DNA from: Verrucomicrobiota bacterium | GTDB taxonomy: Bacteria > Verrucomicrobiota > Verrucomicrobiia > Limisphaerales > SIBE01 | Reading direction: 5' to 3' | Length of the DNA: 64,000 bases | Assembly: GCA_016871515.1 (NCBI GenBank) | Contig: VHDE01000002.1 | Span: forward strand, 1-64,000 | Shown here: positions 46,201 through 64,000 of the stretch, in pieces | How the letters are laid out: every line of letters begins with the position of its first letter | How positions within the stretch are numbered: the stretch's first letter is position 1 | Made by a program: the position numbers and the translations under genes | The notes under the pieces: model-generated | The model's input: only the letters and a program-made list of their open reading frames with translations | Database searches by the model: none | Told to the model about the DNA's origin: nothing

Positions 46201-46625
46201 CCGTCGTGTTCGCCGATTTCGTAGATCGGAACGATGTTCGGATGATCGAGCTTCGCCGCGGCTTGTGCCTCTGTGTAGAACCGCTGCACGGCAGCGCGCG
46301 AGGCCAAACGTCCGGCCAGAATCATTTTCAGCGCAACGATGCGGTTCAGGCTGATTTGCCGCGCCTTGAAGATCACGCCCATCCCGCCGCGCGCCATTTC
46401 TTCGAGCAATTCGTAATCGCCGAAATAGCGGAGCTTTGCTGGTGGCGAGTGGAAAGTGGTGAGGGGTGAGGGGCGAGAGGCGAGGGACGAGTCTGACGCC
46501 TCGCTCGTCGCTTCGGCCTCGTCTGCATCGCTGAGCCCGAGTTGAATGAGTCATTGCGGGCAGACGCCCTCCGGGGCGTCGAGCGGGAGTTCAGAGCCGC
46601 AGTCGGGACAAGTCGGTTTCGCCAT
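43295..46625 (-). pseudogene. Serine/threonine protein kinase with C-terminal WD40 repeats, multiply disrupted
   Basis: The minus strand first encodes MAKPTCPDCGSELPLDAPEG and then VCPQ followed by TGA (46551-46553), exactly where family members have the second Cys of a zinc ribbon. After it, [12 protein letters not shown] leads into the kinase ([50 protein letters not shown]), a membrane helix ([17 protein letters not shown]), and WD40 blades. Near 44843 the frame shifts (restored reading [20 protein letters not shown]) and at 44465-44467 there is an in-frame TGA after KLWEVGT. The blades then continue (SGGSDRE-like) to 43295. A 46-bp perfect palindrome sits inside the later blades at 44148. 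Three lesions make a functional product unlikely. Confidence 0.85.
44148..44193. repeat. 46-bp perfect palindrome inside the WD40 coding region
   Basis: GGAGCGCCGGGCATCGCTCG begins a 23-bp arm that is followed with no spacer by its exact inverse, ending at 44193. It is read in the WD40 frame as PERRASLGRPSDARRSE. A perfect palindrome this long does not arise from coding constraint, so it looks like an inserted element. Confidence 0.9.
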
Positions 46626-47532: not shown

Positions 47533-48180
47533 TCACTCTTTCAAGAACTCCTTCACTTCGGGAAACGTGGGCAAGGGACCATCGAACAAGTGATCGTCTT
47601 GATTCTTTAAATATTTGTTGAAGAAAGAGACGAGGTAAGTTCGGGTGATTTGGCTCACGCGGACACCGGAGATTTGCTCTTCGGGCGGAACGGCTCCGAG
47701 TGGAACTAACGCTTCCGGCTCGAAGATTAACCCGTTCAGATTAAAATTCCAGCGAATGGTCTTCGCTACTTTCAGCCAAAAGCCGTCCTTCTGGAGTTCT
47801 TCGTAAACGTTTTTGACATCCCCATCGGATTCGTCTGCCCGAAAGATGATCAACGGTTTGTTCTGGGTTTGCGCATCCGTGACCGGCCCCCAGAACCTAC
47901 CGTGAATGTTTGCGCTGGCCTTGCAGCGAGCATCGATGCGGCATAGCTCTGCGGCAGTGAAACCGCCGATCGTGAACCCAAACGCCCCTACACGTTCCAA
48001 GTCGGCATGCTGAGCGAGCGGGAGAATCCCTGCGCTGCCTCGCGCCAGTTCATCAAGGATCAACCGCCAGTCCAGGACGCGGTCGCTGGTCCTAGCCGCT
48101 CCGTCCGTTACTGGGCCCAGTCCATTAACAACATAACAGCGGCCATCGAACGAGAGCATGGGCATCGATTTGATTACCAC
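47533..48180 (-). pseudogene. Alpha/beta-hydrolase (PAF-acetylhydrolase/dienelactone-hydrolase-like) C-terminal remnant
   Basis: The frame runs from 48180, where the DUF5615 gene ends, so its N-terminal half is absent. What remains has DWRLILDELARGSAGILPLA, DLERVGAFGFTIGGFTAAEL, CRIDARCKASANIHGRFW and VYEELQKDGFWLKV. Relatives read GHSFGG...AAxxCxxDxRFKAxxNxDG; here GFTIGG replaces the GHSFGG elbow, losing the Ser nucleophile. The C-terminal His region is not identified. A pseudogene is the simplest reading, though a non-catalytic protein cannot be ruled out. Confidence 0.6.
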
Positions 48181-48563
48181 TTCACAACGTTGGTTGTTCG
48201 CGTGCCGGCTTTCCAGAACTTCACGCTTGCAACGTGGACATGGATAACCTTTCCGAGGCGCTTTGCCGTGGCATCGAACTCAGGATGCCGCAGGAATCGG
48301 CGGATGTAGCCCGCAACCTGTCCTTCGTGTTCAGGAACGTCCATGTAAACCAAAGCATAGGCAGGATGACAAAGCGCTGGTTTGTAGAAATCTCGGTCTT
48401 TCGTGAAGAACGTTGGTCGCTTGAGGCGATGCAGAATCGCAAGAATGTTTTCGTCGCTGATGCTTTTTTCGGCGATTTCTTCCCCGATGACCCGAACGGT
48501 GATGCGCCACTCACGCAGCCGCCAGATTTCGATCTCGGAGATGTTCTCGTCGATAAGTAGCAT
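48174..48563 (-). CDS. DUF5615-type PIN-like protein (toxin-like)
   Basis: The protein of about 129 residues starts MLLIDENISEIEIWRLREWR and has ITVRVIGEEIAEKSISDENI, LKRPTFFTKDRDFYKPALCH and YALVYMDVPEHEGQVAGYIR. DUF5615 is a PIN-like domain whose conserved acidic residues (DEN near the start, TKDRDF in the middle) suggest a nuclease. It overlaps the upstream DUF433 gene by about 53 bp, the usual arrangement of this pair, which is thought to be a toxin-antitoxin-like module. A longer frame to 48683 precedes it but the family starts near MLLIDEN. Confidence 0.8.
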   Translation of the reverse strand: MLLIDENISEIEIWRLREWRITVRVIGEEIAEKSISDENILAILHRLKRPTFFTKDRDFYKPALCHPAYALVYMDVPEHEGQVAGYIRRFLRHPEFDATAKRLGKVIHVHVASVKFWKAGTRTTNVVKW

Positions 48564-48822
48564 TGCTCTTGAAGAACCGCTTCTCCTTAAATTGTTCGCT
48601 CGCCAATCGAACGGCCTCGGTAATTGCTTCCATTGGCACCTTGCCGCGCCACGACCAGACAATACGTTCCCATGGCGTGCCATACGCCACCTGTTCCAAC
48701 ACCTGATAAACCATCACCCGAGTTCCTTTGAACGTCGGTTTGCCATGACAGATCGCTGGATCAGCGACGATGTATTCGCCCAAGGGTACGGCTTGCGGTT
48801 TTCGGTCTGCTTTGTTCTTCAT
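48511..48822 (-). CDS. DUF433 antitoxin-like protein
   Basis: The 103-residue protein from MKNKADRKPQAVPLGEYIVA has DPAICHGKPTFKGTRVMVYQ, VLEQVAYGTPWERIVWSWRG and KVPMEAITEAVRLASEQFK. This is the DUF433 helix-turn-helix family (the GxPxxxGTRxxV motif), the usual antitoxin and DNA-binding partner of DUF5615. The overlap with the downstream gene implies coupled translation. A longer frame to 49227 is not used. A likely self-regulating pair, with the operator not located. Confidence 0.82.
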   Translation of the reverse strand: MKNKADRKPQAVPLGEYIVADPAICHGKPTFKGTRVMVYQVLEQVAYGTPWERIVWSWRGKVPMEAITEAVRLASEQFKEKRFFKSNATYRREHLRDRNLAAA

Positions 48823-49019
48823 TCGACTGTTCGACGATACGCTTAGCGTGTCGCTTTGGCAATCCCAACGGTTGACGGTAAGGAAAGAGATTTTGGCATT
48901 TTCTATCTTCGCGTCCTTTGCGATCTTCTGTTCAACCCGTGGGACATATGCGCTGTCAAACGAACTCAGAATCGCAATTGGTGATAACGTCAGAAAGCGG
49001 CTGCATTCATGGACCACCA

Positions 49020-49961
49020 TCACTGACGAATGCGAAAGAATAGAGCACCCACGGCTATTGGAACCGTTTTTGGATTTGTTTGACTTGCCGCAGCGCTCCA
49101 AGGGCCGGTCACAGCGGTTGCTTGTTGTAACGTCCCGGTTCCCGTCCAGGAGATAATGATATTTTTTCCCTGGCGTACGATGGGGTTGAGCATTGGCGGT
49201 GCGGTCGAGGCACCCCCAGTAGCCCATTTTACTGCGGTATCGAATAACTTCAGTCCGTCTGCATTGAGATTCGCGTAAGTGGTATCACCGAAGGGAAGCA
49301 TCACGCGCCGCGCGGGCGCTTTGAAGCCGTTGAACATCGCCGCGCCAGCTTCATAGGCGTAAAATGGGACTTGTTAGGGCACACCGGGAACACGGGCGAT
49401 AATGACGGCGCTGCTTGTCGGCAGTCCCCAACTCCAAACGTCAACGTCCTTCACGATCGTAACGACGCCGTTGAGTTCAGCGGCCAGCGGATGCGAGGTG
49501 TTGACGAACTCCAAATCCGTTTGACCAGCGACTTTGGCGTGATTAGTCAAGGCGTCGCCCGTCATCATGAAATCGTCTTGGACGGCTTGCCCCCAGTTAA
49601 TCACCGGCACCGTCGCGGCTCGAAACTCCGCTCCGACATTAACAGACGCTACGGTGGAGGAAACGACGATCAACGCTTTGTTGTTGGCATCCGCGTCTGT
49701 TGTGGACGCGTCGGCCTTCAAAGTGACGGAGAAGCCAAGGGATTCAAGACGGCCTTTCACAGCAGCATCCGAAGCGTTGAGGATGGGAACGCTAACGGTG
49801 CCGACGACGAGCAGCGCCGCCGATTCTGGATCCCCAACAGGTGGCGTAGTGGCAGTTGGTGTTCCTGGAACCGTCGCTTTGAGTTCAGCAATGGAATTGT
49901 ATCTGCGGGCGATCTGCGGAGGGTTCGTGGATGAGAAGACGAGTTTGGAACTCTGCGACAC
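49020..49961 (-). pseudogene. C-terminal part of a secreted Verrucomicrobiota protein, interrupted by TAA
   Basis: Two same-frame pieces (49374-49961 and 49020-49371) join across an in-frame TAA at 49374-49376. The joined reading gives RVPGVP, stop, QVPFYAYEAGAAMFNGFKAP and continues RRVMLPFGD. The first piece contains alternating strands with LVVGTVSVPILNASDAAVKG and LIVVSSTVASVNVGAEF. The end, SWTGTGTLQQATAVTGPWSA, followed by a last blade with FFRIRQ, is the standard C-terminal ending of exported proteins here. The 5' end is missing. A small change, or decay, explains the stop. Confidence 0.65.
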
Positions 49962-51465: not shown

Positions 51466-52014
51466 ATGAAGACTTTTGGCTCAAGTCAGGAATCCGCGGG
51501 ATCCTTCGGCGTCAGGATCCTTCATGCGAAGGCTGCGAAGGCCATCGTGGTTGACCGGAAGATCGCGTTTGTTACTTTTGCCAGTTTCACAGAAGCGGCA
51601 CACAACCGAAATATTGAAGTAGGTGTCCTGATTCGCCTGCCCCGCGTCGCAGAAAGGCTCCACACCTACTTTTGGCCTCATCCATATAAACGTTCTCCGA
51701 CGAATCCACTGCTAATGCCACTCAGTCCGATAGACGAGAAACTCCGCAAACAACCCTTGGAAGCCAAAAGACTTACGGCGCCCCCGAGGTTCTTACCGGA
51801 AGTGATCGCGCTGCCGATCATCCAAACGGACGTGATCACGATTCTAAGGCACGCGGAACTTATACGTCGGCACCATTCTTCTTGTTCCAACTCCCTCGGG
51901 AGTGCTCAGGGCTGCACTTGGAGGTATTGGCGAAATCATCAAGAAAGAAACTCTAACGTCCACGTAACTCCCGATGCCGATATTCTACGAACAAGCGATG
52001 CGTGCCGGAGTTGA
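51466..52014 (+). pseudogene. Phospholipase-D-like (HKD) fragment
   Basis: From MKTFGSSQESAGSFGVRILH the frame has VRILHAKAAKAIVVDRKIAF, VTFASFTEAAHNRNIEVGVL and IRLPRVAERLHTYFW. This closely follows the second half of PLD-family nucleases (HxKxxxxD, then GSANFTEAxxxRNxExGVL). Between His-x-Lys and Asp there are three extra residues, explained by a 9-nt tandem duplication (GCGAAGGCT then GCGAAGGCC, 51526-51543). The residues after YFW are not PLD-like and overlap the next gene by 41 bp. The first HKD half is missing. It resembles the PLD protein DrmC of DISARM systems, but the fit is to the superfamily only. Confidence 0.55.
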
Positions 52015-55000
52015 CGGCGAGCCGGTAGATTGGCTCAAGGAGCAGCATTTGTCCGACTGGCACGGCTTGGCTGCCGCACTTGATAGACTCACACCTGAAC
52101 AGCGTTGCGACGCGATATATGCCGACTGGTTGCTGCAGCTCAATAGCCCCGCGCATTTAGCCTTGCTTCAAGTTCGAAATCTCCTCATCGGCCAGGGTGC
52201 ATTGGCGGCGAATTACCTCGCAGAACTGGCACAGAATGCTGACGACGCATCCGATGGCGAAGAAGCGGAGGTTCGCATCCTTCTACATGGCGATTGGCTT
52301 TTCGTAAGCAACAACGGGCGAAAGGTAACGTCGTTAAACCTTCTTGGACTTTCTCGGTTCTTTGTCCACGCGGCCGGTGGGGGGGTTGAACTTAACGAGC
52401 AAACCATCGGCCGATTCGGCATCGGATTCAAATCTTGCTACCGAATTGCGTCGACGGTTTTCGTGCACACATGGGATGAGACCGGTCATTTCGGCTTTCG
52501 TCTTCCCATCTGCCGGGAGGGGGACGCAGAGTCGCTCCCGGACAGCAGTAAGTTGAAGCATCTGGTCACGAAACTTCGCAGCGTTGGGGTGATGCTTGAT
52601 CCGAGACTTCGAGATGTCAAATGGCTCGGCTATTGCACGCCGGAATATCAAGAAAGCTTACCGGCCGATCTGGAGCAAGTGACCTCCAACCTGAGACAAA
52701 CCATACGCGGGACACTGTTTTGTTTTCGCATTCGCCAAGACAAACAAGCGGAAGTTTGCAGTCGAATTTCAGGTCAGGCCCATGAAGTCTATGAGCTCTG
52801 TCCCTTGTTCCTGCGTAACGTGCGCCTAGTCCAGCTTGGGCGGAACGAGTTGCGCATGCGAGAAATCCGGCGAGTTGCCGAGAATGATCTTCCAAGCAAA
52901 GTCGAAGCAACTAAAGTCGAACTGGCTTCGCAATCGCTCGGCGAGCGGCCTTCCACCTCACGATTCTGGCGCCTGAAGGGCGTCACTGCGGGAGATCTAT
53001 GGCAGATCGCATTGCACGCGGACAGGCAATTCCGGCTGCGAATCGAACAGGAGGAGGATGAACATGGAACCACCGTTAAAGACGGAGCCGCTTATGCCTT
53101 TTTCCCGCTGAACGCGGTGACAAAAACATGGCCCTTCCGCCTCCACTTGCATATCAAGCTTCCGACGAATCTGGCCCGCGACGATTGGAATCCTGACGAC
53201 GCCGTACAAGTGCGTGAGCAGATTGAGCGTGCGATTGCGGGAGTATCGGAATGGCTTGAGCACCATACGGACAAGTGGCACCCAGACTGGAGGATTGAAT
53301 CGCTCGTTGTCAGAAAACCTAACACGAATGAGACGTGGGCATGGCAAATCTGGAACAGGCTTGTTGCTGAACGTCGTGAAAGAAAACTCGTCCGCAACTT
53401 AAGTGGGAATCTTGTCAAAGGAGCACCCGTAAAGGCCATCTGTTTGGTCGAACGGCAGGAAGCGAAAGCCGCCTGGCAGCAGGTTCTCCAATGGCAGGCA
53501 CGAAGTGAAAGCCACTTGGATTTGGCGGTCGCGCCTGACGAGACATTTCCAATGACCGAAGTGTCAGCCCAGGATGTGGCAGCCCTGTGCCGAGGCGCAC
53601 TCGAAGGACCTGACGACGAGGATTCCAAACACCGTGCTGCTTTGACGGCTTTCCTCGGCTGCCATAACCTGATGTTTCACCGTTCGCCCAGCGCGCTCCT
53701 TGAATTTCTTAAGTTGGTTAACTGCGAGACTTCGACAGGGATCAAGATTTCACTGATGGATCTTTGTGAGCAACCCGGAGGAGCGGAATTATCCGATGAG
53801 TGGCATCAAGCCATACGAGTTATTGAGACCTGGGCAACAGAAGTGTCGTGGGCCATGGTGCCGGTGGGAGGACGGCCGCTTTCAGAGCAACTCAAGAAAC
53901 TTTCGAAACCGGAATTCAACCCGGCGTGGCCCGAACTTCCGGTACGGCTTGCTACGGAAGAGCAATGGAGAGTTTATGGCGAAAGGTTCTGGAGAACACC
54001 ACGTGGTCGATGTCCGGAGTCGGTAAGGCAAATGACCCTCTCGTGCATTCGCGTGCCGAATCAAAAAGGAGCTTGGCTGCTCATTGCTGACCTGTGGCTC
54101 GGCGAGGATTCTGCGGTGGATTGCTTTTGTGGCCTACTTAAGAAATGGGACCGCCCACGAACAGACCAACGGCGGAGGGACATTGTCGAGAAATTGGAGG
54201 ACTGGGGACTTTTGGGAACTTGGGAGAATTCAACAAGGACTTCATTGAAGGAGAGGTTGTCTGGTGTCCTCGCACGCCAGTTGGCTCGGCATGCCGGAGA
54301 AGACGCTTTTTCACTCGTCTTCAACAAGTCGTTCGAGGCCGCGTGTCGTCGTCTGGACGATCGCTGGAAGCATATCGTTGACGACGCTGAAGAAACCGCG
54401 GTTAGTCGCTTTCTCGGTGCCCAGGTGAAAGAACACCAGCTTGCCAAGAAAACTCTTGTTAGCCGGACCGTTCCAGATTCCATCCGGTTTGCACTGGAGT
54501 TGCTTCCGCAGTACAGCTCAGCGCCGCTCTGGCTGACCGATGCCGCATATCAGCGCATTATGCGGCTTGGCCTTCAAACCGAGATTGATTTCAAGTTTTT
54601 GAGTCAACAGGAACTTGACGACAATCAAGAGTTCCTTGCTCGGGAGCTACTTGAGAACTTCCACCAATGGCCGCAAGCTCCACTTGAGAAAGCCGCCCTG
54701 GCTGGACTGGGAGTGCTTTGTGGCAGCGCGAGTCTCAGGCAGCGGCGCGACTGGTCGTTGGGATTGGGAGCCCAGAAGACGAGGCGGCTTCGCGATTTAA
54801 TTCTACCGACCTCTGCGAGCATGCAGTTGCCCGCAGGGAGTCGCCTCCAGGAATATCTGCTGCACGATGCCAAATGGCGGGTTGAGAAGTTGCCGGGATC
54901 CTTGGTCGAGGTTTCGGCCTTAGCCGAAGCTTGTGTTCAACCTGATAAACTTGAAATCGACCCAGTTGGCGGCATCTTGACACCTTTGGATCTCGACCAA

Positions 55001-57658
55001 CTGCCGGCCGACATGCCCGTGTCAGTAGAAATCACGGAGATTGTTAAGGCTGGTGCGTACAAACTTTTCGGAAGTCCCAAGGCGTTGAATCTGCGGTGGC
55101 GGTACGAAGGTGAGATTGTTGCGGAGATGGACGACGCATTGTTCGCCTTGGATGCGGAGCGAATCGTTGTCCATCGGTTTCGGCCACCGGCTGACGAAGA
55201 ACAATGCCGCCGTGTTCTGGGGGTGTTTGAAACAAATGCGACAGTATCTCCCGCTTACCAAGCCGACGCAGCTCTGTCACCTTTCGAGCGATACCAGAAG
55301 TACCGTGATACGATTCGCCAGACGCTGTTAAGAGAACTGGTTGCGAAAGTTGGCTACGAAAAGCACCACATCCTTCGCGAGTTGTTGCAGAATGCCGAAA
55401 GCGCTTATGCAAGTAAGAAAAACCCAGAGGCGGAGGCTTGGTTTGAGTTCACAATTGAATCTGTCGCACAGGTGGGGCAGCGAAAGATTGTTGCGCGTCA
55501 CGCCGGTCGAGTTTTCAACGAACCCGACATTGATGGACATGATCGACACGATGTAGAGCGGATTTGGCGTCTCGCGGCTGAAAGTGAACGCACCGCTGAT
55601 GAAATTGGGCGTTTTAATCGAGGATTCAAAACACTGTTCACAGTGGCTGCAAACGGCCTGGTCCACATCCGCAGTGGCGATTACGACTTCGAGGTGATCG
55701 ATCTGCTGCTGCTCAAGCCAGCGGATCCGCGACCGGTTCCGGCCAAGCATTCTCCTCTGACTGAGTTTACTTTTGAAGCGGATTACAAACACGTGCTCGA
55801 GATGCTTCGTCTGGAGGTTACGCCGCGCCCGAACACTCCTCTTCCGGTAGTCAACCCCGCATCATTGGTTTTTCTCATCTATTTGCACCGTATTCGCGTC
55901 ACATTCGAGCAGCGCGTATGGCAGTGGCGAATCGCGCGAAGCCAGAACATCGACAACTGGCGATATGTCACGATTACCGAAGAAGGAGTTGAGTCACCGG
56001 AGCGTTTTCTGGTCTTCTTCGATGCGGCGATGAATTCAGCGACGACTACGCCCTGCCGTAGGTTCGCGGCGGCAGTGCGTATCGATGCCAAGGGATCGCC
56101 AATCACCCTGGAGAAGTCTTGGCGAAAATTCCATCTAACCTTTGAGACCGAGCACGATTTCCCACTGGATTTTCTGGTCAATGGCGACTTCGAAGCCGAC
56201 CAGGGCCGTGTCGGGCTTCGGAACATCGCCCGGAGTGGGTTGGTCGAGCGAGCCTACGATGCTGTCATCCGGCGGGCGACAAGCGAAATCCGCAAGAACC
56301 CTTCGAGCCGGGTTTGGCTTGCCTGGGCTCGGGTGCTTCATTTGAAGGAGGCACCAATGGAGCTTGAGGCGAGCAGCGAGCTTCGACCATTGCGCCGCCA
56401 TGCGGAAAAAGCGGCTGAGGACCTTTGTGAAATCGTACCTCATGGCGGCGGGTTGGTTGCCGCCTCCGCGCTGGAATTTCCCTCCATGCTCTTCCGTCGG
56501 ATTGGGGGTGTTTTTGGATCCCGCTGGCAGATCAATCAATCAAGGTGGATTGATGCCGAAATTGCTGCGGTTCTCCCTGACGGGGATCATCACCGGGTGA
56601 CTTTCGACGGCTGGATCATTTCGCAACAGCCTGAGTCACCTCTTCTCCGACTCGTCGATGCGGACCTGAAATCTGAAGCGTTTACAAGATTGCGCCTTTC
56701 CGGTCCAGAGAAGGACGAACTTGATAAAGCCAAAGGCATTTTGGCGGAGAAGCTGCGACCCGTTGCCCCACCGCTGCCTCCCGAGCCAGCGCTGCCGGTA
56801 GTCGAAGCCTGGTCCATCGCGAATCTCTGGCACTGGTGGGAACGACGTGGCAAGCCGATGTCAAACTATACGCTCGAAGGAGATGAGAATTGGCGTCTGC
56901 TTTACAAAAGTAGCGATGCCGATACAAATGCACGCCGCGCGCGGTTGAAAACAGATTTGCTTGCCGCCAGCTCGGAAGCTGGAAAAAACATTTGGTACCG
57001 TCTTTTCGGATTGGCCTGTTTGATGTCTGTCGGCAGGCGCATGACCGAAGTGCGAGAATTTTGGTGCACCGAGTTGAACGGACGACAATTCTGGGAACGC
57101 ACGAGCGGGAAAACGTTTGGCGAGGGCACAGACGCGTTGTTTGCAGACGTGACAAGACATCCTTTCTCAAATTTGGGTGCGAGCGGAGAATGCGCTTATT
57201 TCTGGCGGCGTGTGTTCTACGACATTCGCAAAATTCACAAGCTTGTGTGGGAAGACGAATTTCAGGGGACACTCCTGCAACTCGTCGCGTCAGGGCGGGG
57301 CGCTCAACTTCTGAACTTCCTAAAAACCGGCCGCTTGCCGGGGCAACATGCTTGGGTCGGGGTTTTCGGGCAAAGTGCTGGCGCACCTCTATTCTTTGTG
57401 GTCCGGGAGTTGTGCCGGCTCGGAGTAATCACCGATTCTGCGGTGAAACCGCTCGCCTTTTTTGTATCCACGCCAGTGCGCCGCGCAATGGAGCGAATCG
57501 GCTGGCTCGATGCCGAAATCGGTAATCGCGCCGACTTCGAGTCGCTTGCGACTTTGAGCGAGTCACTCTACCAGAAGCTCGCTGCCGATGCGGAATTTGG
57601 CCCTCGCCTGATAACGTATTACGACATTCCACTCCTCCATCTCGGCCTAGAAGGTTAG
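51974..57658 (+). CDS. Giant sacsin-like protein with two GHKL-type ATP-binding modules
   Basis: The 1894-residue protein has a first ATP-binding module at about residues 65-180: YLAELAQNADDASDGEEAEV (N box with Glu84 and Asn88), LFVSNNGRKVTSLNLLGLSR (an altered G1 box) and IGRFGIGFKSCYR (G2 box). A second, similar module lies at about residues 1115-1300: HHILRELLQNAESAYASKKN, then IGRFNRGFKTLF. This repeated layout and the ELxQNAxxA...GRFxxGFKS pattern match the sacsin/Hsp90-type ATPases. The middle and C-terminal regions have no recognised domain. The gene ends 2 nt before the helicase gene, so the two form an operon. An upstream PLD-like fragment and downstream phage-like genes point to anti-phage or phage-related use. 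Start at 51974; 52001 is an alternative. Confidence 0.8.
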   Translation: MPIFYEQAMRAGVDGEPVDWLKEQHLSDWHGLAAALDRLTPEQRCDAIYADWLLQLNSPAHLALLQVRNLLIGQGALAANYLAELAQNADDASDGEEAEVRILLHGDWLFVSNNGRKVTSLNLLGLSRFFVHAAGGGVELNEQTIGRFGIGFKSCYRIASTVFVHTWDETGHFGFRLPICREGDAESLPDSSKLKHLVTKLRSVGVMLDPRLRDVKWLGYCTPEYQESLPADLEQVTSNLRQTIRGTLFCFRIRQDKQAEVCSRISGQAHEVYELCPLFLRNVRLVQLGRNELRMREIRRVAENDLPSKVEATKVELASQSLGERPSTSRFWRLKGVTAGDLWQIALHADRQFRLRIEQEEDEHGTTVKDGAAYAFFPLNAVTKTWPFRLHLHIKLPTNLARDDWNPDDAVQVREQIERAIAGVSEWLEHHTDKWHPDWRIESLVVRKPNTNETWAWQIWNRLVAERRERKLVRNLSGNLVKGAPVKAICLVERQEAKAAWQQVLQWQARSESHLDLAVAPDETFPMTEVSAQDVAALCRGALEGPDDEDSKHRAALTAFLGCHNLMFHRSPSALLEFLKLVNCETSTGIKISLMDLCEQPGGAELSDEWHQAIRVIETWATEVSWAMVPVGGRPLSEQLKKLSKPEFNPAWPELPVRLATEEQWRVYGERFWRTPRGRCPESVRQMTLSCIRVPNQKGAWLLIADLWLGEDSAVDCFCGLLKKWDRPRTDQRRRDIVEKLEDWGLLGTWENSTRTSLKERLSGVLARQLARHAGEDAFSLVFNKSFEAACRRLDDRWKHIVDDAEETAVSRFLGAQVKEHQLAKKTLVSRTVPDSIRFALELLPQYSSAPLWLTDAAYQRIMRLGLQTEIDFKFLSQQELDDNQEFLARELLENFHQWPQAPLEKAALAGLGVLCGSASLRQRRDWSLGLGAQKTRRLRDLILPTSASMQLPAGSRLQEYLLHDAKWRVEKLPGSLVEVSALAEACVQPDKLEIDPVGGILTPLDLDQLPADMPVSVEITEIVKAGAYKLFGSPKALNLRWRYEGEIVAEMDDALFALDAERIVVHRFRPPADEEQCRRVLGVFETNATVSPAYQADAALSPFERYQKYRDTIRQTLLRELVAKVGYEKHHILRELLQNAESAYASKKNPEAEAWFEFTIESVAQVGQRKIVARHAGRVFNEPDIDGHDRHDVERIWRLAAESERTADEIGRFNRGFKTLFTVAANGLVHIRSGDYDFEVIDLLLLKPADPRPVPAKHSPLTEFTFEADYKHVLEMLRLEVTPRPNTPLPVVNPASLVFLIYLHRIRVTFEQRVWQWRIARSQNIDNWRYVTITEEGVESPERFLVFFDAAMNSATTTPCRRFAAAVRIDAKGSPITLEKSWRKFHLTFETEHDFPLDFLVNGDFEADQGRVGLRNIARSGLVERAYDAVIRRATSEIRKNPSSRVWLAWARVLHLKEAPMELEASSELRPLRRHAEKAAEDLCEIVPHGGGLVAASALEFPSMLFRRIGGVFGSRWQINQSRWIDAEIAAVLPDGDHHRVTFDGWIISQQPESPLLRLVDADLKSEAFTRLRLSGPEKDELDKAKGILAEKLRPVAPPLPPEPALPVVEAWSIANLWHWWERRGKPMSNYTLEGDENWRLLYKSSDADTNARRARLKTDLLAASSEAGKNIWYRLFGLACLMSVGRRMTEVREFWCTELNGRQFWERTSGKTFGEGTDALFADVTRHPFSNLGASGECAYFWRRVFYDIRKIHKLVWEDEFQGTLLQLVASGRGAQLLNFLKTGRLPGQHAWVGVFGQSAGAPLFFVVRELCRLGVITDSAVKPLAFFVSTPVRRAMERIGWLDAEIGNRADFESLATLSESLYQKLAADAEFGPRLITYYDIPLLHLGLEG

Positions 57659-57660
57659 TC

Positions 57661-60408
57661 ATGAGCAGTACGTTCCAGCCCCAGACACGCCTGTTTCACC
57701 GTACTCATCCAGAATACGGGTTCGGCCTCGTGCGCTATGTTGAGGAGGATGCGTTCGGCGAATTGCGAATGCAGGTGTCATTCGACCACCTCGATCAACT
57801 TCTTAATGTTGCCCCGAGCGAAGTTGAGATTTGCCAAGACCCGATGGCAGATGCCTCTACTGAGACTTGTGGCGAGGTTGAGGTTTTCAAGCGCAAGCTG
57901 GCTGCTGGACTCATCATTGCGGAAAACAATCTGACTGGTGGCTTTACCAAGGCCGCAGTTCAACCTCTCCCTCACCAAGCATTCCTCTTGGAGAAAGTTC
58001 TGGCTTCCGAGCGCTTTGGCCACGTCCTGGCGGACGATGTCGGGCTTGGAAAGACAGTTGAGGCGGGATTGTTGATCACCTGCCTTATGCGTCGAGAACC
58101 GCCACAGCGTGTGTTGGTCGTCTGCCCTGCGGGGTTGGCTCTCCAATGGAAGGACGAGATGGATGAGCATTTTGGGTTGAACTTCACGATTCTTGGGCGC
58201 GATTTCGATGGCAAGCTCGCGTCGAACTGGCAAAACCAACCCCTGGTCATTGCACCGATTGATCGATTGAAACGTGACGAATACCGCGAACTGATCGCAC
58301 AAGTGGGTGGGTTTGACCTGGTTGCCTGTGATGAGGCGCACCGATTGACGGCTCAACGCCGCTTTCTGAGCCAGAAGCTTGAAAAGACATCCAACTACCG
58401 GTTGTTTGAGTTCCTGGTGACAAGCAGGCTCATCCGCCACGTGAACAACGCGGACAACACGCCACGCTCCCCTAGGCTCCTCCTCCTGTCGGCGACGCCG
58501 CACCAGGGTGACGACGAGAGATTCCTCTACCTGCTTCATCTGGCTCGTCCGGACTTGTTTCAGCCGGGCAATCGGCCATTGGGCCAGCAACTCACAACAG
58601 CAGCCCTCGTTGAAACGCTGACTCGCACTCCGAAATCTAGGGCTGTTGATTGGGAAGGGAGGCTCTTGTTCAAGGGGCATCAAGCTATGACGCTCGATGT
58701 GCGATGGACAACCGAGGAGACTGAAGTGTCGAGGCTGCTCACGGAGTACATTTTGAAAAGTCTGGATTTTGTGCGTGACTCCGATCGAGGAACACAACTC
58801 GTTGTGCAACTCGTAATGCACACTTTCCACAAGCTTGCGGCAAGCAGTTGGCAGGCTCTGGGCCGGGCCTTGCAGCGTCGGCTCGAATCTTTAAAAGGCC
58901 GTACAGAACGGTTGGCAGAATTGTTGGAAGTGGACGAGGAGGATGAGGACAGTGACGAAGTCCGAGATTTCGCCCTGCCGACCAGAGCGTTCTTTGAAAA
59001 TGAACGAGTCCTGCTCGAGACACTCTTGACTCGGTTGCACGAGTTATCGAGCGATTCAAAGTGGAAACACTGTGCGGAGCTGCTCGCTGAGTTGGAAAAG
59101 ACCGAATGTGGTGCGAAAGTTCTCATCTTCACACAATACCGCACCACTCAGGAAATGCTCCAACAGCGCGTCGCGGGTTTGTTTCCCGGTTCGGTCGTAG
59201 AAGTAATCCACGGAGATGTCGAGATGGAGGACCGCAAGTCGGCCCGAATCAGGTTTGAGCGCAATTCGCGGTTCATGGTATCCACCGAGGCGGGAGGCGA
59301 GGGAATCAACCTCCAGAAGGCCTGCCACTTAATGATCAACTACGATTTGCCCTGGAACCCGATGCGCTTGCAGCAACGGATCGGTCGGCTCGACCGATTC
59401 GGACAGGAGCATGTTGTTCGTGTCTTCAACCTGCGCGTTCCCGATTCGTGGGATCACCACATCTCCACGCGCATCCTGGAGCGTCTCGATGTGATTCAAC
59501 GCACCATGACGGCGGCTGGTTCAGGGTCTGCTGAAGATTACCGGGAAATGATTCTCGGCCAAGTGGCGGAGCAGATTGATGCAACCCGGCTTTTTACAGA
59601 GTCACGAGCTGGCCACGGCGTGACGGATGAACAGATGGACTCGTGGATCAAGTCGGCGCTGGAATCAATGTCACGGTGGCGGGACTTGTTCAGTCCAGAG
59701 TTGGGCTTGTCAGACAACGGTACGAGATTGAAACCATCGCTGGGCAGCGCGGAGTTCAAGTTGGCGTTCAGACTTGCGTGCGAAGCTCAAGGCATCCGGC
59801 TGCGCGAAACCCGCAATAGTGAAAATCAATTTGTGCCGGAGGTTTTCAACTTCGACCTGCCAACCGCGTTCCGGGATCCCATTTTTCGCCCGTTGCGGAC
59901 AATGCATGTCGTGTTCGATCGCGATGTGTATGCCGCTGTTCGCGGGCAGGACCTTGGCACAGTGCGTGGCCAGCCAATTCGTCCGGTTCTTGCGGGCTTT
60001 GGCGAGCCGTTTACGGACTGGCTGTTCCAGACCGCGTTACGCGCAACTGCTGGCCCAAGCGCCTTTTCCCTGTGCTCAGGCGATGAATGGCCACTTGGAA
60101 AAGGTTGGTTGCTCGTCTATGCCCTTCGCTGGATGGGGAAAAGCCGCCGGATCGCTGCGCCAGATTCAATCGTTGTTTGTCACGTCAATGATTCAGGTCA
60201 AGCGCGTCAGATCGATTCGTCAGAGACCATAAAACTGGCGGACGCCACAACTACTGCCGCCGGGCATCTGAATCTACCTTCTGAAGAGGCGCAAGCTGCC
60301 GCTCGAAAGCTTGCCCAGCAGAGTTTGAAGAATTGTGCCGCAAACCGAGATGCATTCGCGCGAGGTGCGGCTGGCCTGTCGCTCTTGATGGCTGCCAGGG
60401 TTGTGTAG
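57661..60408 (+). CDS. SNF2-family DEAD/DEAH helicase
   Basis: The 915-residue protein has VLADDVGLGKTVEAGLL (Walker A, about residues 121-137), LVVCPAGLALQWKDEMDEHF (motif Ia), DLVACDEAHRLTAQR (Walker B, DEAH, about 220) and RLLLLSATPHQGDDE (motif III). The second helicase half is VLIFTQYRTTQEML, FMVSTEAGGEGINLQKACHL, and INYDLPWNPMRLQQRIGRLD, with RFGQ just after (motif VI). This is the SNF2/RapA-like layout. The C-terminal part, about residues 630-915, is not recognised. It starts 2 nt after the sacsin-like gene stop, so the ATPase and helicase probably act together. It resembles, but is not proven to be, DrmD of DISARM; the other DISARM genes are missing. A DNA translocase used in defence is inferred. 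Confidence 0.85.
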   Translation: MSSTFQPQTRLFHRTHPEYGFGLVRYVEEDAFGELRMQVSFDHLDQLLNVAPSEVEICQDPMADASTETCGEVEVFKRKLAAGLIIAENNLTGGFTKAAVQPLPHQAFLLEKVLASERFGHVLADDVGLGKTVEAGLLITCLMRREPPQRVLVVCPAGLALQWKDEMDEHFGLNFTILGRDFDGKLASNWQNQPLVIAPIDRLKRDEYRELIAQVGGFDLVACDEAHRLTAQRRFLSQKLEKTSNYRLFEFLVTSRLIRHVNNADNTPRSPRLLLLSATPHQGDDERFLYLLHLARPDLFQPGNRPLGQQLTTAALVETLTRTPKSRAVDWEGRLLFKGHQAMTLDVRWTTEETEVSRLLTEYILKSLDFVRDSDRGTQLVVQLVMHTFHKLAASSWQALGRALQRRLESLKGRTERLAELLEVDEEDEDSDEVRDFALPTRAFFENERVLLETLLTRLHELSSDSKWKHCAELLAELEKTECGAKVLIFTQYRTTQEMLQQRVAGLFPGSVVEVIHGDVEMEDRKSARIRFERNSRFMVSTEAGGEGINLQKACHLMINYDLPWNPMRLQQRIGRLDRFGQEHVVRVFNLRVPDSWDHHISTRILERLDVIQRTMTAAGSGSAEDYREMILGQVAEQIDATRLFTESRAGHGVTDEQMDSWIKSALESMSRWRDLFSPELGLSDNGTRLKPSLGSAEFKLAFRLACEAQGIRLRETRNSENQFVPEVFNFDLPTAFRDPIFRPLRTMHVVFDRDVYAAVRGQDLGTVRGQPIRPVLAGFGEPFTDWLFQTALRATAGPSAFSLCSGDEWPLGKGWLLVYALRWMGKSRRIAAPDSIVVCHVNDSGQARQIDSSETIKLADATTTAAGHLNLPSEEAQAAARKLAQQSLKNCAANRDAFARGAAGLSLLMAARVV

Positions 60409-60528
60409 TTTCTGGCATACTTAACCTCACGCGATCATTTTGCTGAGCACATTTTGCTTGCAGGTCGCCAGCCGCTTTGCTTCCTTCTTCCGCAACAAGG
60501 CAGGATGAATTCCTGACAACATGGAGTG

Positions 60529-61254
60529 ATGGACAGGAAGTGTCTCCAGATTCCGGTGGACTTCGCGAGTCGCACGGAGTTCCGGTTGCTCGAACGAGCG
60601 ATTGGAAAGCCCGGCGTCGCGGCGGTGCTCTTCCTCTACCTCTGGCGGGCGTTGGCCTACGCAGCGGAGAATGGGCGGCCAGGTGCGTTGTCTCGCGATC
60701 AATCGGTACTGCTGGCAGAAGACTTGGCTTTTCTCGAACTCCAGGATCCGATCGCGTTGTTAACCACGCCGAATGGGTTTCTGGTTCTGGAAGGGGACGG
60801 ATATTTCTGTCCGCTGTTCTCCGCCGCAAACAAGCATCTCGCTTCTGATTTCGTCCCGATCCAACGCCAAGCTGGGTTGGCGCGCGGGGTGGTGATGAAA
60901 CGCCGGTCGCTGGAAGGAGTCGCGCAACAGCAAAGTTTGTTGTTGGACCCGGCGCTGTTCAAACGGCCGGACAGGAGTCCGATGAGCCCGGATGAAATCA
61001 ATCGCGCGATCATGCTCATCAAATTGCTCGGCGGTTATTTGGGCCGGCGCGCCCGGTTGAACTCGGAATCTTCCCCCGGCCTCATCGCCGATGCCCACCG
61101 CGCGGATCGCGCTTACTCGGAAGACACGATCAATCGTTTTTGCTCGTGGCTTTATGTGCAACGGCAAAGCCACGCGGGGCATCCGGGCCTGCCGGAAACG
61201 ACCGAGCAGGTGTTGCACGATTTTGAGCGGTACGTGAAGGCCGTGGAAAACTGA
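60529..61254 (+). CDS. Unrecognised protein, probably phage-related
   Basis: The 241-residue protein from MDRKCLQIPVDFASRTEFRL (ATG at 60529, or GTG at 60526) has LERAIGKPGVAAVLFLYLWR, ALAYAAENGRPGALSRDQSV, PLFSAANKHLASDFVPIQRQ and SEDTINRFCSWLYVQRQSHA. Mixed helices, no signal peptide and no known domain. The stop overlaps the next start by one base (TGATG), so they are coupled. Position just before two more genes and a terminase suggests a phage packaging or structural operon. A gap of about 120 bp separates it from the helicase. Confidence 0.55.
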   Translation: MDRKCLQIPVDFASRTEFRLLERAIGKPGVAAVLFLYLWRALAYAAENGRPGALSRDQSVLLAEDLAFLELQDPIALLTTPNGFLVLEGDGYFCPLFSAANKHLASDFVPIQRQAGLARGVVMKRRSLEGVAQQQSLLLDPALFKRPDRSPMSPDEINRAIMLIKLLGGYLGRRARLNSESSPGLIADAHRADRAYSEDTINRFCSWLYVQRQSHAGHPGLPETTEQVLHDFERYVKAVEN

Positions 61255-62558
61255 TGCGCAAGAAGTCGAAGTTACCGTCCCCGATTCAAGCCCAGCTTCG
61301 GCCTGTCGAACCGGCTCCAGCCGAGTCTCCGGCTTTGGCGGCTGTCGTCGAATACCGGCCCGTCAACGAATCTGGTCTGTGGCGAGTTGAGCAATGGGAG
61401 TTGTTCGCCGGGGAATTCTCACTCGTTCGCAAGGAGGACTTGCCTGTTTTTCATGAAATGCTTTCGCGTTCGCCTCGGGCCTGGATGATCGTCCGGCGAC
61501 TATTTGGTTTTCGGCCGCTGCGGCTGCCTCTGAACGGAAACCCGGATGACTATCGCACGTGGTCTCGATTCGAGCTGTGCGACAATATGGGCATTGCCGA
61601 AAAGGAGCTGGCTGCGGAACTGGAAGCGCTGCGGACATTCTGGCAGCAACACTTATCGCCGAAACAACCGGACACTCCACCGCCTCCGCCTTCTGCTCCA
61701 AACGGTCAAATGACCTTGGTGGAGACGGACGATGAAGTGTTGAAGAAGTATGGCTTCAATTCGTCCGTGTTCGATCTGCCGCATCGTTCTCCGGAAGACA
61801 ACAAGGTCGAAAAGCAATGGTTCGCGATTCGCGTGCGGGAATGGCGGAAACTGTTCGACCAATCCATGACCGCGCGGCTCGCCACACAGGCGCTCTTCAA
61901 CGAGATGCGGCTGCGCCGCGAAGAGAACGCCTTGTGGGACCTGGACAAGCAACCGGTGCCGGAGAGCCTGGAGAAACGAAATCTCCTGGAGAAAAACAAA
62001 GCGGCCATCGAAAACCGGATCACGGAATTGGAGCAGTCGTACCAGGAGCAATTGAAAAACATCGAGGACATCGCGCCGTGGTTCAACGCCACGGGTAAAC
62101 AGATTTCGATTACGGGCGCGATCGGCGAACTGATCAAGGGCGTTCAGGAATACAAAGCGAAGAAGGACACCCGCATCCTCGATGGCGTCTTCACGGCGTT
62201 GGAATTGCAGGTCCTCATGCAGCAAAGCCGGCAGGTGCCTGAGCCGATGTATCGTTTTGGCTGGGTCACGTATATCAATTCCACCAAAGCGTTCCTCTGG
62301 GACCAGAGTTTCGAATCAGCGTCTCGGCCGGCTGATCTGGCGAAATTGGACGCGGGTTTCAAAGCGGGGGTGCAGCGGTTCACCGAGGAGCGCGGTGACG
62401 TGCTGCCCGACCTGGAACGCGACGGACCGGAAGGCGAATATGAAGAACTCTACAGCCGAGAAGAGAAAACGAAGACGCAAGGACCTCAACCTGGCCCGCG
62501 CGACCGATCTGAAACAGTTCTTCCGCAAGCGTCGGTGGAGACGGGCGACGGGATTTAA
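61254..62558 (+). CDS. Unrecognised coiled-coil protein, probably phage-related
   Basis: The 434-residue protein from MRKKSKLPSPIQAQLRPVEP has a proline-rich start, then FHEMLSRSPRAWMIVRRLFG, SRFELCDNMGIAEKELAAEL, and a proline-rich linker (PPPPPSAPNGQ). A coiled coil, LEKNKAAIENRITELEQSYQ, lies around residues 248-285. The last part is acidic (DLERDGPEGEYEELYSREEK). I do not recognise a family. It is coupled to the gene before it and followed by the terminase large subunit. A small-terminase or portal-related role is possible by position only. Confidence 0.5.
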   Translation: MRKKSKLPSPIQAQLRPVEPAPAESPALAAVVEYRPVNESGLWRVEQWELFAGEFSLVRKEDLPVFHEMLSRSPRAWMIVRRLFGFRPLRLPLNGNPDDYRTWSRFELCDNMGIAEKELAAELEALRTFWQQHLSPKQPDTPPPPPSAPNGQMTLVETDDEVLKKYGFNSSVFDLPHRSPEDNKVEKQWFAIRVREWRKLFDQSMTARLATQALFNEMRLRREENALWDLDKQPVPESLEKRNLLEKNKAAIENRITELEQSYQEQLKNIEDIAPWFNATGKQISITGAIGELIKGVQEYKAKKDTRILDGVFTALELQVLMQQSRQVPEPMYRFGWVTYINSTKAFLWDQSFESASRPADLAKLDAGFKAGVQRFTEERGDVLPDLERDGPEGEYEELYSREEKTKTQGPQPGPRDRSETVLPQASVETGDGI

Positions 62559-62850: not shown

Positions 62851-64000
62851 ATGATTCCACCCGTGAACATCCTGATCTCCACCGATCCCCCCAAACACCT
62901 TCGCATCACCCAGACCATGTTGGAGAATCTCCTCTGGGACCCGGTCATGGCCGCATGGGTGTTTTTCAAGATCAAACTCGACGCCTTCCAGGCCGTGCGC
63001 CTGCGCATTTACTGGCTCACGCCGGACGTCGAGGATCACAGCGGGTTTACCAGCGGCAAAACCATCGTCGATTGGGTCTGGTGCAATCTCTCCGCCGTCC
63101 TCCTCTACGATTGCCATATCGGGGTAATCTTCCAAACGTTTCAAATCGGGAAGGACAACTTCTGGCAGTACTACAAGGAGTTCAGCACGCCCCTGTTCCG
63201 CGCACAACTCGGGCTGATGGAGGAAGAGGTCCGGGAGAAATCGCAGTTTAAGGAGCCAGGCTGTTGGAAGCAGCATTTCAAAAACCGGAGCATGGTCGCG
63301 ATGCCGGCGCCGGGCTTTTTGCAGGAAGCGCGCAATCTGGCCGGCTGGCGCGTGAACCGGCTGCTCATCGACGAATGGACCAAGATCATGATGTCGGCCG
63401 GGGGCGCCGAAGGCATCCAGAAACAATTGTTGGGGCGGGTCACCCGGCCCTGCTACAACGCCAATCACCCGGTCTGGTGCAACAACGTCGTGCGGTCCGC
63501 GACGGCGGAGCTGGGCAATCATCCCGGATTCCGGGTGCATCGCGAATACGAACGGGAGGTCAAGCGCGGCAACCCGGACTACTGGACCTTCGGCTTTTCC
63601 TACGAGAACTACTCCAACCTGCGCTGTCACACGGGCAAAACGTTCAAGGACCAATATCGCGATGAAAAGCGGCTGCGCACGTTGAAGCTGTCGAACACGC
63701 CGGAGAAATTCCGCGCCGAGGGCCTTGGCCTTTGGCAAAAGCAATCCAAGGGCTGGTACACCTCGGAGATGATCGAGGCTGGCCAGGCGTTGGGGCGACA
63801 ACGGAAATTGGAGCCGATCCTCAGCCGGGCGACCGATCCCCTCGGAAAAGACCCGGAAGTGCGGTACTTCCTGGGCGTGGACCCGGCTCCGAGCCAGGGG
63901 CAACGCAGCGACGAAGGCGCGATCATGGTGTTGCGCGCCCGGCCCGCCCCGTGGAGAACCCCGGCGATTTCGAGGGCGATTGGACCACGGACTTCGTCTA
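62851..64000 (+). CDS. Phage terminase large subunit-like protein (runs off right edge)
   Basis: An open frame from the ATG at 62851 reads MIPPVNILISTDPPKHLRIT and then DHSGFTSGKTIVDWVWCNLS, a Walker A-like loop (GFTSGKT, residue ~69). RVNRLLIDEWTKIMMSAGGA (Walker B) follows. Downstream, RYFLGVDPAPSQGQRSDEGA has the nuclease Asp and acidic residues expected of the terminase RNase-H-fold nuclease, about 350 residues in. This is the usual terminase layout. Near 63931-63950 a one-base change would allow a better reading (RPVENPGDFEGDWTTDFV) than the current frame, so another indel is likely there. The real protein continues beyond 64000. Confidence 0.75.
   Translation, partial: MIPPVNILISTDPPKHLRITQTMLENLLWDPVMAAWVFFKIKLDAFQAVRLRIYWLTPDVEDHSGFTSGKTIVDWVWCNLSAVLLYDCHIGVIFQTFQIGKDNFWQYYKEFSTPLFRAQLGLMEEEVREKSQFKEPGCWKQHFKNRSMVAMPAPGFLQEARNLAGWRVNRLLIDEWTKIMMSAGGAEGIQKQLLGRVTRPCYNANHPVWCNNVVRSATAELGNHPGFRVHREYEREVKRGNPDYWTFGFSYENYSNLRCHTGKTFKDQYRDEKRLRTLKLSNTPEKFRAEGLGLWQKQSKGWYTSEMIEAGQALGRQRKLEPILSRATDPLGKDPEVRYFLGVDPAPSQGQRSDEGAIMVLRARPAPWRTPAISRAIGPRTSS

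What the first reader, a model, noticed from the sequence alone, without database searches (positions are those of the whole stretch)
51974..60408. Two-gene module: a double-GHKL sacsin-like giant protein next to an SNF2 helicase
Directly seen: the 1894-residue protein has two separate N-box/G2-box sets (ELAQNADDA with FGIGFKS, and ELLQNAESA with FNRGFKT) about 1050 residues apart, and the SNF2 gene begins 2 nt after its stop. Known: sacsin-type repeats of Hsp90-like ATP sites occur in eukaryotic sacsin and in some bacterial proteins near defence genes; SNF2 helicases occur in DISARM and Zorya. Inference: this is a small, probably unnamed anti-phage or DNA-surveillance system in which an ATP-driven clamp feeds a translocase. 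The second module's altered G2 box (FNRGF) may make it a regulatory rather than catalytic site.
Basis: partly seen in the sequence, partly recalled or inferred. Interest (0 to 1): 0.85.

Follow-up and report, generated by a model that had tools for sequence, protein, structure and literature searches.

The report
Sacsin-like double-ATPase plus SNF2 defence pair
Two bacterial genes, one for a giant protein with two Hsp90/sacsin-type ATP sites and one for a DNA-motor protein, travel together between genomes, often beside known anti-virus genes, and probably form an undescribed bacterial immune module, although no virus-resistance test has been done.

Summary
In detail: an 1894-aa protein (51974-57658, +) has two GHKL/sacsin ATP-site modules 1052 residues apart, and an SNF2 gene (57661-60408) starts 2 nt after its stop.

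The pairing is real and reciprocal. Of 320 genomes of the same order, 10 carry the window-type SNF2, and the same 10 carry the giant protein next to it (hypergeometric P about 1e-15, not corrected for relatedness). Distribution is patchy; same-genus relatives lack it. Divergent versions, fused or split in two genes, occur with an SNF2 gene on Deinococcus, cyanobacterial and Sphingomonas plasmids.

Neighbours point to defence. One homologous pair sits inside a BREX operon with Septu upstream, others lie next to Mrr or Eco57I genes, and the cyanobacterial one lies beside complete DISARM. The window itself holds a drmC remnant 300 bp upstream.

Module 2 has lost a canonical G2 glycine (GRFNRGFK) in all seven window-type copies that cover it; divergent types keep it. 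A conserved ~280-aa C-terminal domain spans the double-module types.

It fails membership tests for DISARM, BREX, Hma and Tiamat. Most likely it is an undescribed defence module in which the GHKL protein gates an SNF2 DNA translocase. Phage resistance is untested; both structure predictions failed.

The parts
51974..57658 (+). Giant protein with two GHKL/sacsin modules, 1894 aa
   Evidence: ORF; NF047352 2 stretches 84.5 bits; SACS 2 stretches; homologues 65% (L001) and 44% (L002) identical
52151..52528 (+). GHKL module 1 (about residues 60-185), canonical N-box E84/N88/D91 and G2 GRFGIGFKS
   Evidence: motif positions; GRFGIGFKS present in all window-type copies that cover it
55301..55753 (+). 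GHKL module 2 (about residues 1110-1260): N-box E1136/N1140 kept, N-box Asp replaced by Ser1143, H[AS]GR where a G1 box is expected, G2 altered to GRFNRGFK
   Evidence: alignment of 7 window-type copies
56813..57649 (+). Conserved C-terminal domain (residues about 1614-1892), proposed SNF2-docking domain, no Pfam match
   Evidence: hhalign to the Deinococcus/Trichormus/Sphingomonas family E 7.8e-13; alignment of 12 pairs
57661..60408 (+). SNF2-family DNA translocase/helicase, 915 aa
   Evidence: Pfam SNF2-rel_dom, Helicase_C; 70% identical to its counterpart in L002
57943..59499 (+). Helicase core of the SNF2 protein (residues about 95-613; Walker A K131, DEAH 224-227)
   Evidence: PADLOC BrxHI/HmaA/DrmD core matches; motifs
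51535..51672 (+). 3' remnant of a DISARM drmC-like phospholipase D gene
   Evidence: PADLOC DrmC E 3.9e-14; 54% identity over 46 aa to Trichormus DrmC

Best explanation
This is a horizontally mobile, tightly coupled two-gene defence module. SHOWN: the giant double-GHKL protein and a dedicated SNF2 translocase are inherited as a unit, the giant protein ends in a C-terminal domain conserved across the double-module types, and such pairs repeatedly sit in or beside restriction, BREX, DISARM, Septu and Hma genes. INFERRED: the giant protein dimerises like Hsp90/MutL/MORC and works as an ATP-gated clamp or sensor; module 1 hydrolyses ATP, while module 2 (G2 glycine lost, N-box Asp lost) binds nucleotide or protein without normal turnover and acts as a regulatory module; the C-terminal domain docks the SNF2 motor; on sensing invading DNA the clamp licenses the motor to translocate on it, blocking replication or transcription or delivering the DNA to a nuclease supplied by a neighbouring system. 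No nuclease domain was found in the pair itself.
For: Reciprocal co-occurrence in 10/10 genomes of the order, adjacent, same strand, gap about -8 to +6 nt in intact pairs. Patchy distribution: no match in two same-genus genomes, and only one of five other same-family genomes has the window type. Fused and split versions with SNF2 in Deinococcota, Cyanobacteria, Alphaproteobacteria. Defence context: BREX (PglX-GHKL-SNF2-BrxC/PglY-PglZ-BrxD-BrxHI) with PtuAB upstream in G345; Mrr gene 3 nt upstream in L001; Eco57I MTase next to the G551 pair; complete DISARM next to the Trichormus version; Hma next to G495; drmC remnant in the window. C-terminal-domain and SNF2 distances correlate, r 0.92. Module-2 alteration invariant in 7 copies. 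Precedent for GHKL + SF2 helicase + nuclease/MTase operons (PMC2292703) and a phage-defending GHKL-nuclease, VcSduA (PMC12137116).
Against: No experimental phage data. The own genome has no PglZ and no MZB (DrmB proxy) match and the drmC copy is a remnant, so the window pair must act alone if active. L002 and G317 pairs have no recognised defence neighbour. No nuclease or toxin domain in the pair. Closest solved SNF2 relative is RapA, an RNA-polymerase recycling factor. The distance correlation is dominated by two clades. Structure predictions unusable.
Confidence: 0.55

Rival explanations
1. Accessory part of a larger known system (BREX or DISARM): the pair supplies an extra sensor/motor to PglX-PglZ or DrmAB machinery and is not a defence system by itself.
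For: In G345 the pair lies between PglX and BrxC/PglY in one run of same-strand genes; a drmC remnant lies beside the window pair and complete DISARM beside the Trichormus version; SNF2 core resembles BrxHI and DrmD.
Against: G345 BREX has its own BrxHI at 927 bits and Trichormus DISARM its own drmD, so the pair replaces neither. Most pairs have no BREX or DISARM recognised next to them, and the own genome has no PglZ or MZB match.
Confidence: 0.2
2. Transcription-linked surveillance: the SNF2 acts on stalled RNA polymerase like RapA and the GHKL protein controls it.
For: RapA is the closest solved relative of the SNF2, E 1.7e-26; NCBIfam RapA 148 bits.
Against: RapA score far below the RapA cut-off of 576; core matches to BrxHI, HmaA and DrmD are stronger; patchy distribution is unlike a housekeeping factor.
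Confidence: 0.1
3. Protein quality control: the giant protein is a sacsin/Hsp90-type chaperone and the SNF2 neighbour is incidental or a client.
For: Sacsin domain family matches; Hsp70 + TPR gene next to a truncated copy in G434.
Against: Reciprocal, tight linkage to one SNF2 subfamily; no Ubl, J or HEPN domain matched; restriction/BREX/DISARM neighbours.
Confidence: 0.08
4. Mobile-element cargo used by the element itself (plasmid or prophage competition) with no benefit to the host.
For: Relatives on plasmids; right flank of the window has a terminase-like gene 95% identical in another genus.
Against: No relative found in phage records or viral contigs.
Confidence: 0.07

Closest known systems
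Tiamat (TmtA)
   Same: Sacsin-type GHKL ATP-site region; PADLOC TmtA profiles match with E down to 4e-20.
   Different: Match covers only profile positions 47-222 of 1302; Tiamat is a single-gene system (own knowledge), whereas this is a double-module protein with a dedicated SNF2 partner and its own C-terminal domain.
MORC/paraMORC restriction-modification operons (Iyer et al. 2008, PMC2292703)
   Same: GHKL ATPase plus superfamily II (including SNF2) helicase, with nucleases and DNA methylases nearby.
   Different: The GHKL modules here match the sacsin models, not HATPase_c_3, are duplicated in one 1894-aa chain, and the chain carries a distinct C-terminal domain.
DISARM DrmD
   Same: SNF2 core; 307.6 bits to NF038317; a drmC remnant lies upstream.
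   Different: Below the 610-bit cut-off; no MZB/DrmB match in the genome; the Trichormus relative lies beside a DISARM locus that has its own drmD.
BREX BrxHI/BrxHII
   Same: Best PADLOC match of the SNF2, core only, 301.9 bits; a homologous pair is embedded in a BREX locus.
   Different: That BREX locus has its own BrxHI (927 bits); no PglZ in the own genome.
Hma (HmaABC)
   Same: SNF2 core, 272.5 bits to HmaA.
   Different: No HmaB methylase or HmaC ATPase recognised with the window pair; in G495 Hma genes lie next to a pair of the divergent type.
Sacsin
   Same: Repeated Hsp90-like ATP sites in one giant chain.
   Different: Two modules, not three; no Ubl, J or HEPN domain matched; partnered with a DNA motor.

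Membership tests
Sacsin N-terminal ATP-binding-like domain (NF047352 / PF25794) | Profile score above the curated cut-off | tested here: met
   84.5 against 50 bits; 34.9 against 32.8 bits
Sacsin protein | Three repeats plus Ubl, J and HEPN domains | tested here: not met
   Pfam finds only the sacsin/HATPase matches, in two places
Tiamat (TmtA) | Full-length match to TmtA | tested here: not met
   Only the GHKL region, at best profile 47-222 of 1302
Tiamat (TmtA) | Stand-alone gene | tested here: not met
   SNF2 partner adjacent in intact copies
DISARM | DrmD above cut-off | tested here: not met
   307.6 against 610 bits
DISARM | DrmA and DrmB present | tested here: not met
   No MZB (PF09369, used as the DrmB proxy) match in the own genome; DrmA not searched separately
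BREX | PglZ present | tested here: not met
   No PF08665 match in the own genome, 92% complete; a relative in G345 does lie in a BREX locus
Hma | HmaB methylase and HmaC ATPase adjacent | tested here: not met
   Right-hand neighbours 60526-62558 have no HmaB/HmaC match in PADLOC
MORC/paraMORC | GHKL followed by an S5 fold with the MORC motif | not testable with these tools
   No usable structure model; HATPase_c_3 not matched
Anti-phage defence system | Reduces phage infection | not testable with these tools
   Needs a bench assay

The most novel reading that the evidence does not exclude
A previously unnamed superfamily of defence systems, defined by a double-sacsin-GHKL protein with a conserved C-terminal docking domain plus a coupled SNF2 translocase, in fused, split and bridging forms across at least four phyla; in the Verrucomicrobiota branch the second ATPase has become a fixed regulatory pseudo-ATPase, and the module can plug into BREX and DISARM loci.
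Probability: 0.5. Interest if true: 0.8.

Novelty: new variant of a known kind. Interest (0 to 1): 0.62.

Why it matters
Sacsin-type Hsp90 modules are known mainly from a human ataxia protein whose ATPase mechanism is debated. A bacterial version tied to a DNA motor in immune islands would give a tractable system for asking what such modules do, and would link MORC/MutL-like ATP clamps to SNF2 translocases in defence. It also suggests that some genes labelled DrmD in defence databases may belong to a different system.

Tried and rejected
AlphaFold2 on residues 1-1094 and 1095-1894 with three-sequence alignments gave mean pLDDT 36.6 and 35.0; discarded, so no fold search was run. Viral contigs and phage records gave no relatives. 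The window protein itself finds nothing in plasmids by tblastn; distant relatives were reached through the SNF2 neighbour and confirmed by hhalign. Rejected: that the SNF2 is DrmD or BrxHI (scores, and relatives' loci have their own); a general sacsin-SNF2 rule in the phylum, since of the 8 genomes with a sacsin-like match above cut-off only 3, the window included, have a clear adjacent SNF2-family gene. SNF2 genes of D. actinosclerus, D. aquaticus and Nitrosococcus have other, non-GHKL partners. Raw sacsin-domain counts in the phylum are inflated by proteins of about 630 aa, taken to be HtpG/GyrB/MutL. A guess at the Pfam family PF24410 (wHTH-HSP90_Na-assoc) gave nothing, controls included.

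Full report
WHAT IS THERE. The 1894-aa ORF (51974-57658) and the 915-aa SNF2 ORF (57661-60408) are real and 2 nt apart. The first has two sacsin-type GHKL modules with N-boxes at E84 and E1136 and G2 boxes at 148 and 1214; NCBIfam and Pfam sacsin models score above cut-off with two stretches each. The second has SNF2-rel_dom and Helicase_C.

IS THE PAIR REAL? A scan of genome contigs gave two close relatives: L002, with both genes (44% and 70% identity), and L001, whose contig ends inside the giant gene. A profile search of all 320 genomes held for the order found 27 with matches, 15 of them of the window type at 50 bits or more. I fetched their surroundings and searched all ORFs. Adjacent SNF2 genes of the window's own subfamily occur in the window, G369 (the genome of L002), G317, G345, G308, G551, G552 and G264, with rearranged remains in G293 (an in-frame chimera) and G283 (decayed). 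The exceptions are contig ends (G453, G289) or fragments (G434, G471, G292). The reverse search for the SNF2 over the same 320 genomes shows a sharp gap: the same 10 genomes reach 300 bits or more, all others 264 or less. Hypergeometric P is 1.1e-15, or 2.4e-14 without one of the two congeneric genomes; shared ancestry is not corrected for. Intact pairs are same-strand with gaps of about -8 to +6 nt. Two same-genus genomes have no match and only one of five other same-family genomes has the window type, so it is an accessory, mobile trait.

A WIDER FAMILY. The plasmid of Trichormus variabilis has a split form: 828 aa (GHKL 1), 1853 aa (GHKL 2 plus C-terminal domain), then SNF2. Deinococcus wulumuqiensis (two copies) and D. 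sp. QL22 have fused forms of about 2450 aa followed by SNF2, and Sphingomonas a form split elsewhere. Profile-profile comparison links them to the window protein through the C-terminal domain (E 7.8e-13) and GHKL 2 (E 2.6e-6). G551 is a bridge: canonical ATP motifs in both modules, but the window-type C-terminal domain and SNF2. C-terminal-domain and SNF2 distances correlate (r 0.92, 12 pairs), mostly because both split into the same two clades. A third arrangement, SNF2 upstream of a single-module TmtA-like protein, occurs in nine further loci, one SNF2 with an N-terminal HEPN_Swt1 domain.

THE SECOND ATP SITE. In seven window-type copies module 2 keeps the catalytic Glu and the Asn of the N-box but has Ser or Asn where Hsp90 has Asp40, H[AS]GR where a G1 box is expected, and GRFNRGFK in place of GRFGxGFK. 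In the Hsp90-sacsin comparison (PMC9880540) Asp40 and Gly121 are invariant ATP-site residues. Module 1 keeps GRFGIGFKS, and Trichormus, Deinococcus and G551 keep FGLGFK in module 2. The change is therefore fixed in one branch and not a sequencing accident. That it makes the site regulatory is inference.

CONTEXT. In G345 the order is PtuA, PtuB, PglX, an ORF that looks PD-(D/E)XK-like by eye, giant GHKL, SNF2, BrxC/PglY, PglZ, BrxD, BrxHI. L001 has an Mrr_cat + zinc-ribbon gene ending 3 nt upstream; G551 an Eco57I methylase; Trichormus complete DISARM with its own drmD; G495 Hma genes; D. wulumuqiensis a NucS-domain gene, a methylase and an S subunit. In the window a drmC 3' remnant lies 300 bp upstream. 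L002 and G317 have no recognised defence neighbour.

MECHANISM. Shown: co-inheritance, tight gene spacing, conserved C-terminal domain, asymmetric ATP sites, defence neighbours. Inferred: GHKL dimer clamp, ATP-gated sensing, docking of SNF2 through the C-terminal domain, translocation on invading DNA, and destruction by a nuclease in trans or a roadblock effect. No nuclease was found in the pair. The 2008 MORC/paraMORC proposal (PMC2292703) is the nearest published mechanism, and VcSduA (PMC12137116) is a tested GHKL-nuclease defence protein.

MEMBERSHIP AND NOVELTY. The pair fails tests for DISARM, BREX, Hma and Tiamat. Text searches of the open library found no description of a double-sacsin-GHKL + SNF2 system, but subscription papers and most preprints are not held. 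I therefore call it a new variant of a known kind: GHKL plus helicase defence modules.

LIMITS.

Noticed in passing
L063:5888-12864 and L064, L113, L116, L118, L119, L121, L122, L123: A third arrangement: SNF2-family gene directly upstream of a single-module TmtA(Tiamat)-like protein; in L063 the SNF2 has an N-terminal HEPN_Swt1 domain. Tiamat-like proteins may often be two-gene systems.
   Followed up: partly
L062:25304-28006 (Trichormus variabilis plasmid): PADLOC DrmD model PDLC02634 matches this SNF2 over its whole length (2174 bits), but the adjacent DISARM locus has its own drmD; the model may mislabel GHKL-paired SNF2 genes as DISARM.
   Followed up: partly
L129:11512-18421 (G434): DUF6088/AbiEi-like gene, an Hsp70 + TPR gene, a UvrD-like helicase gene and a truncated window-type GHKL gene in a row on one strand.
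   Followed up: partly
L008:9813-14373; L009:5745-12412; L010:5709-12421: Nitrosococcus and two Deinococcus plasmids pair a related SNF2 with a non-GHKL protein; the partners differ in length (524 to 1315 aa) but share a C-terminal domain starting GRLTRRQRAE. Possibly a parallel two-gene system.
   Followed up: no
62851-64000: Terminase-large-like gene to the right of the pair, GC3 about 81% against 58-62% for the pair, 95% identical in another genus (G369) and in several pieces in G370: a recent mobile element.
   Followed up: partly
L103:4804-8232 (G293): In-frame chimera joining the middle of the giant GHKL gene to the C-terminal part of SNF2, from a deletion or an assembly error.
   Followed up: no
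48174-49227: Two minus-strand ORFs that look by eye like a DUF433/DUF5615-type toxin-antitoxin pair.
   Followed up: no
43295-46409: Protein kinase with WD40-like repeats (by eye) read in two separate minus-strand ORFs, possibly frameshifted.
   Followed up: no
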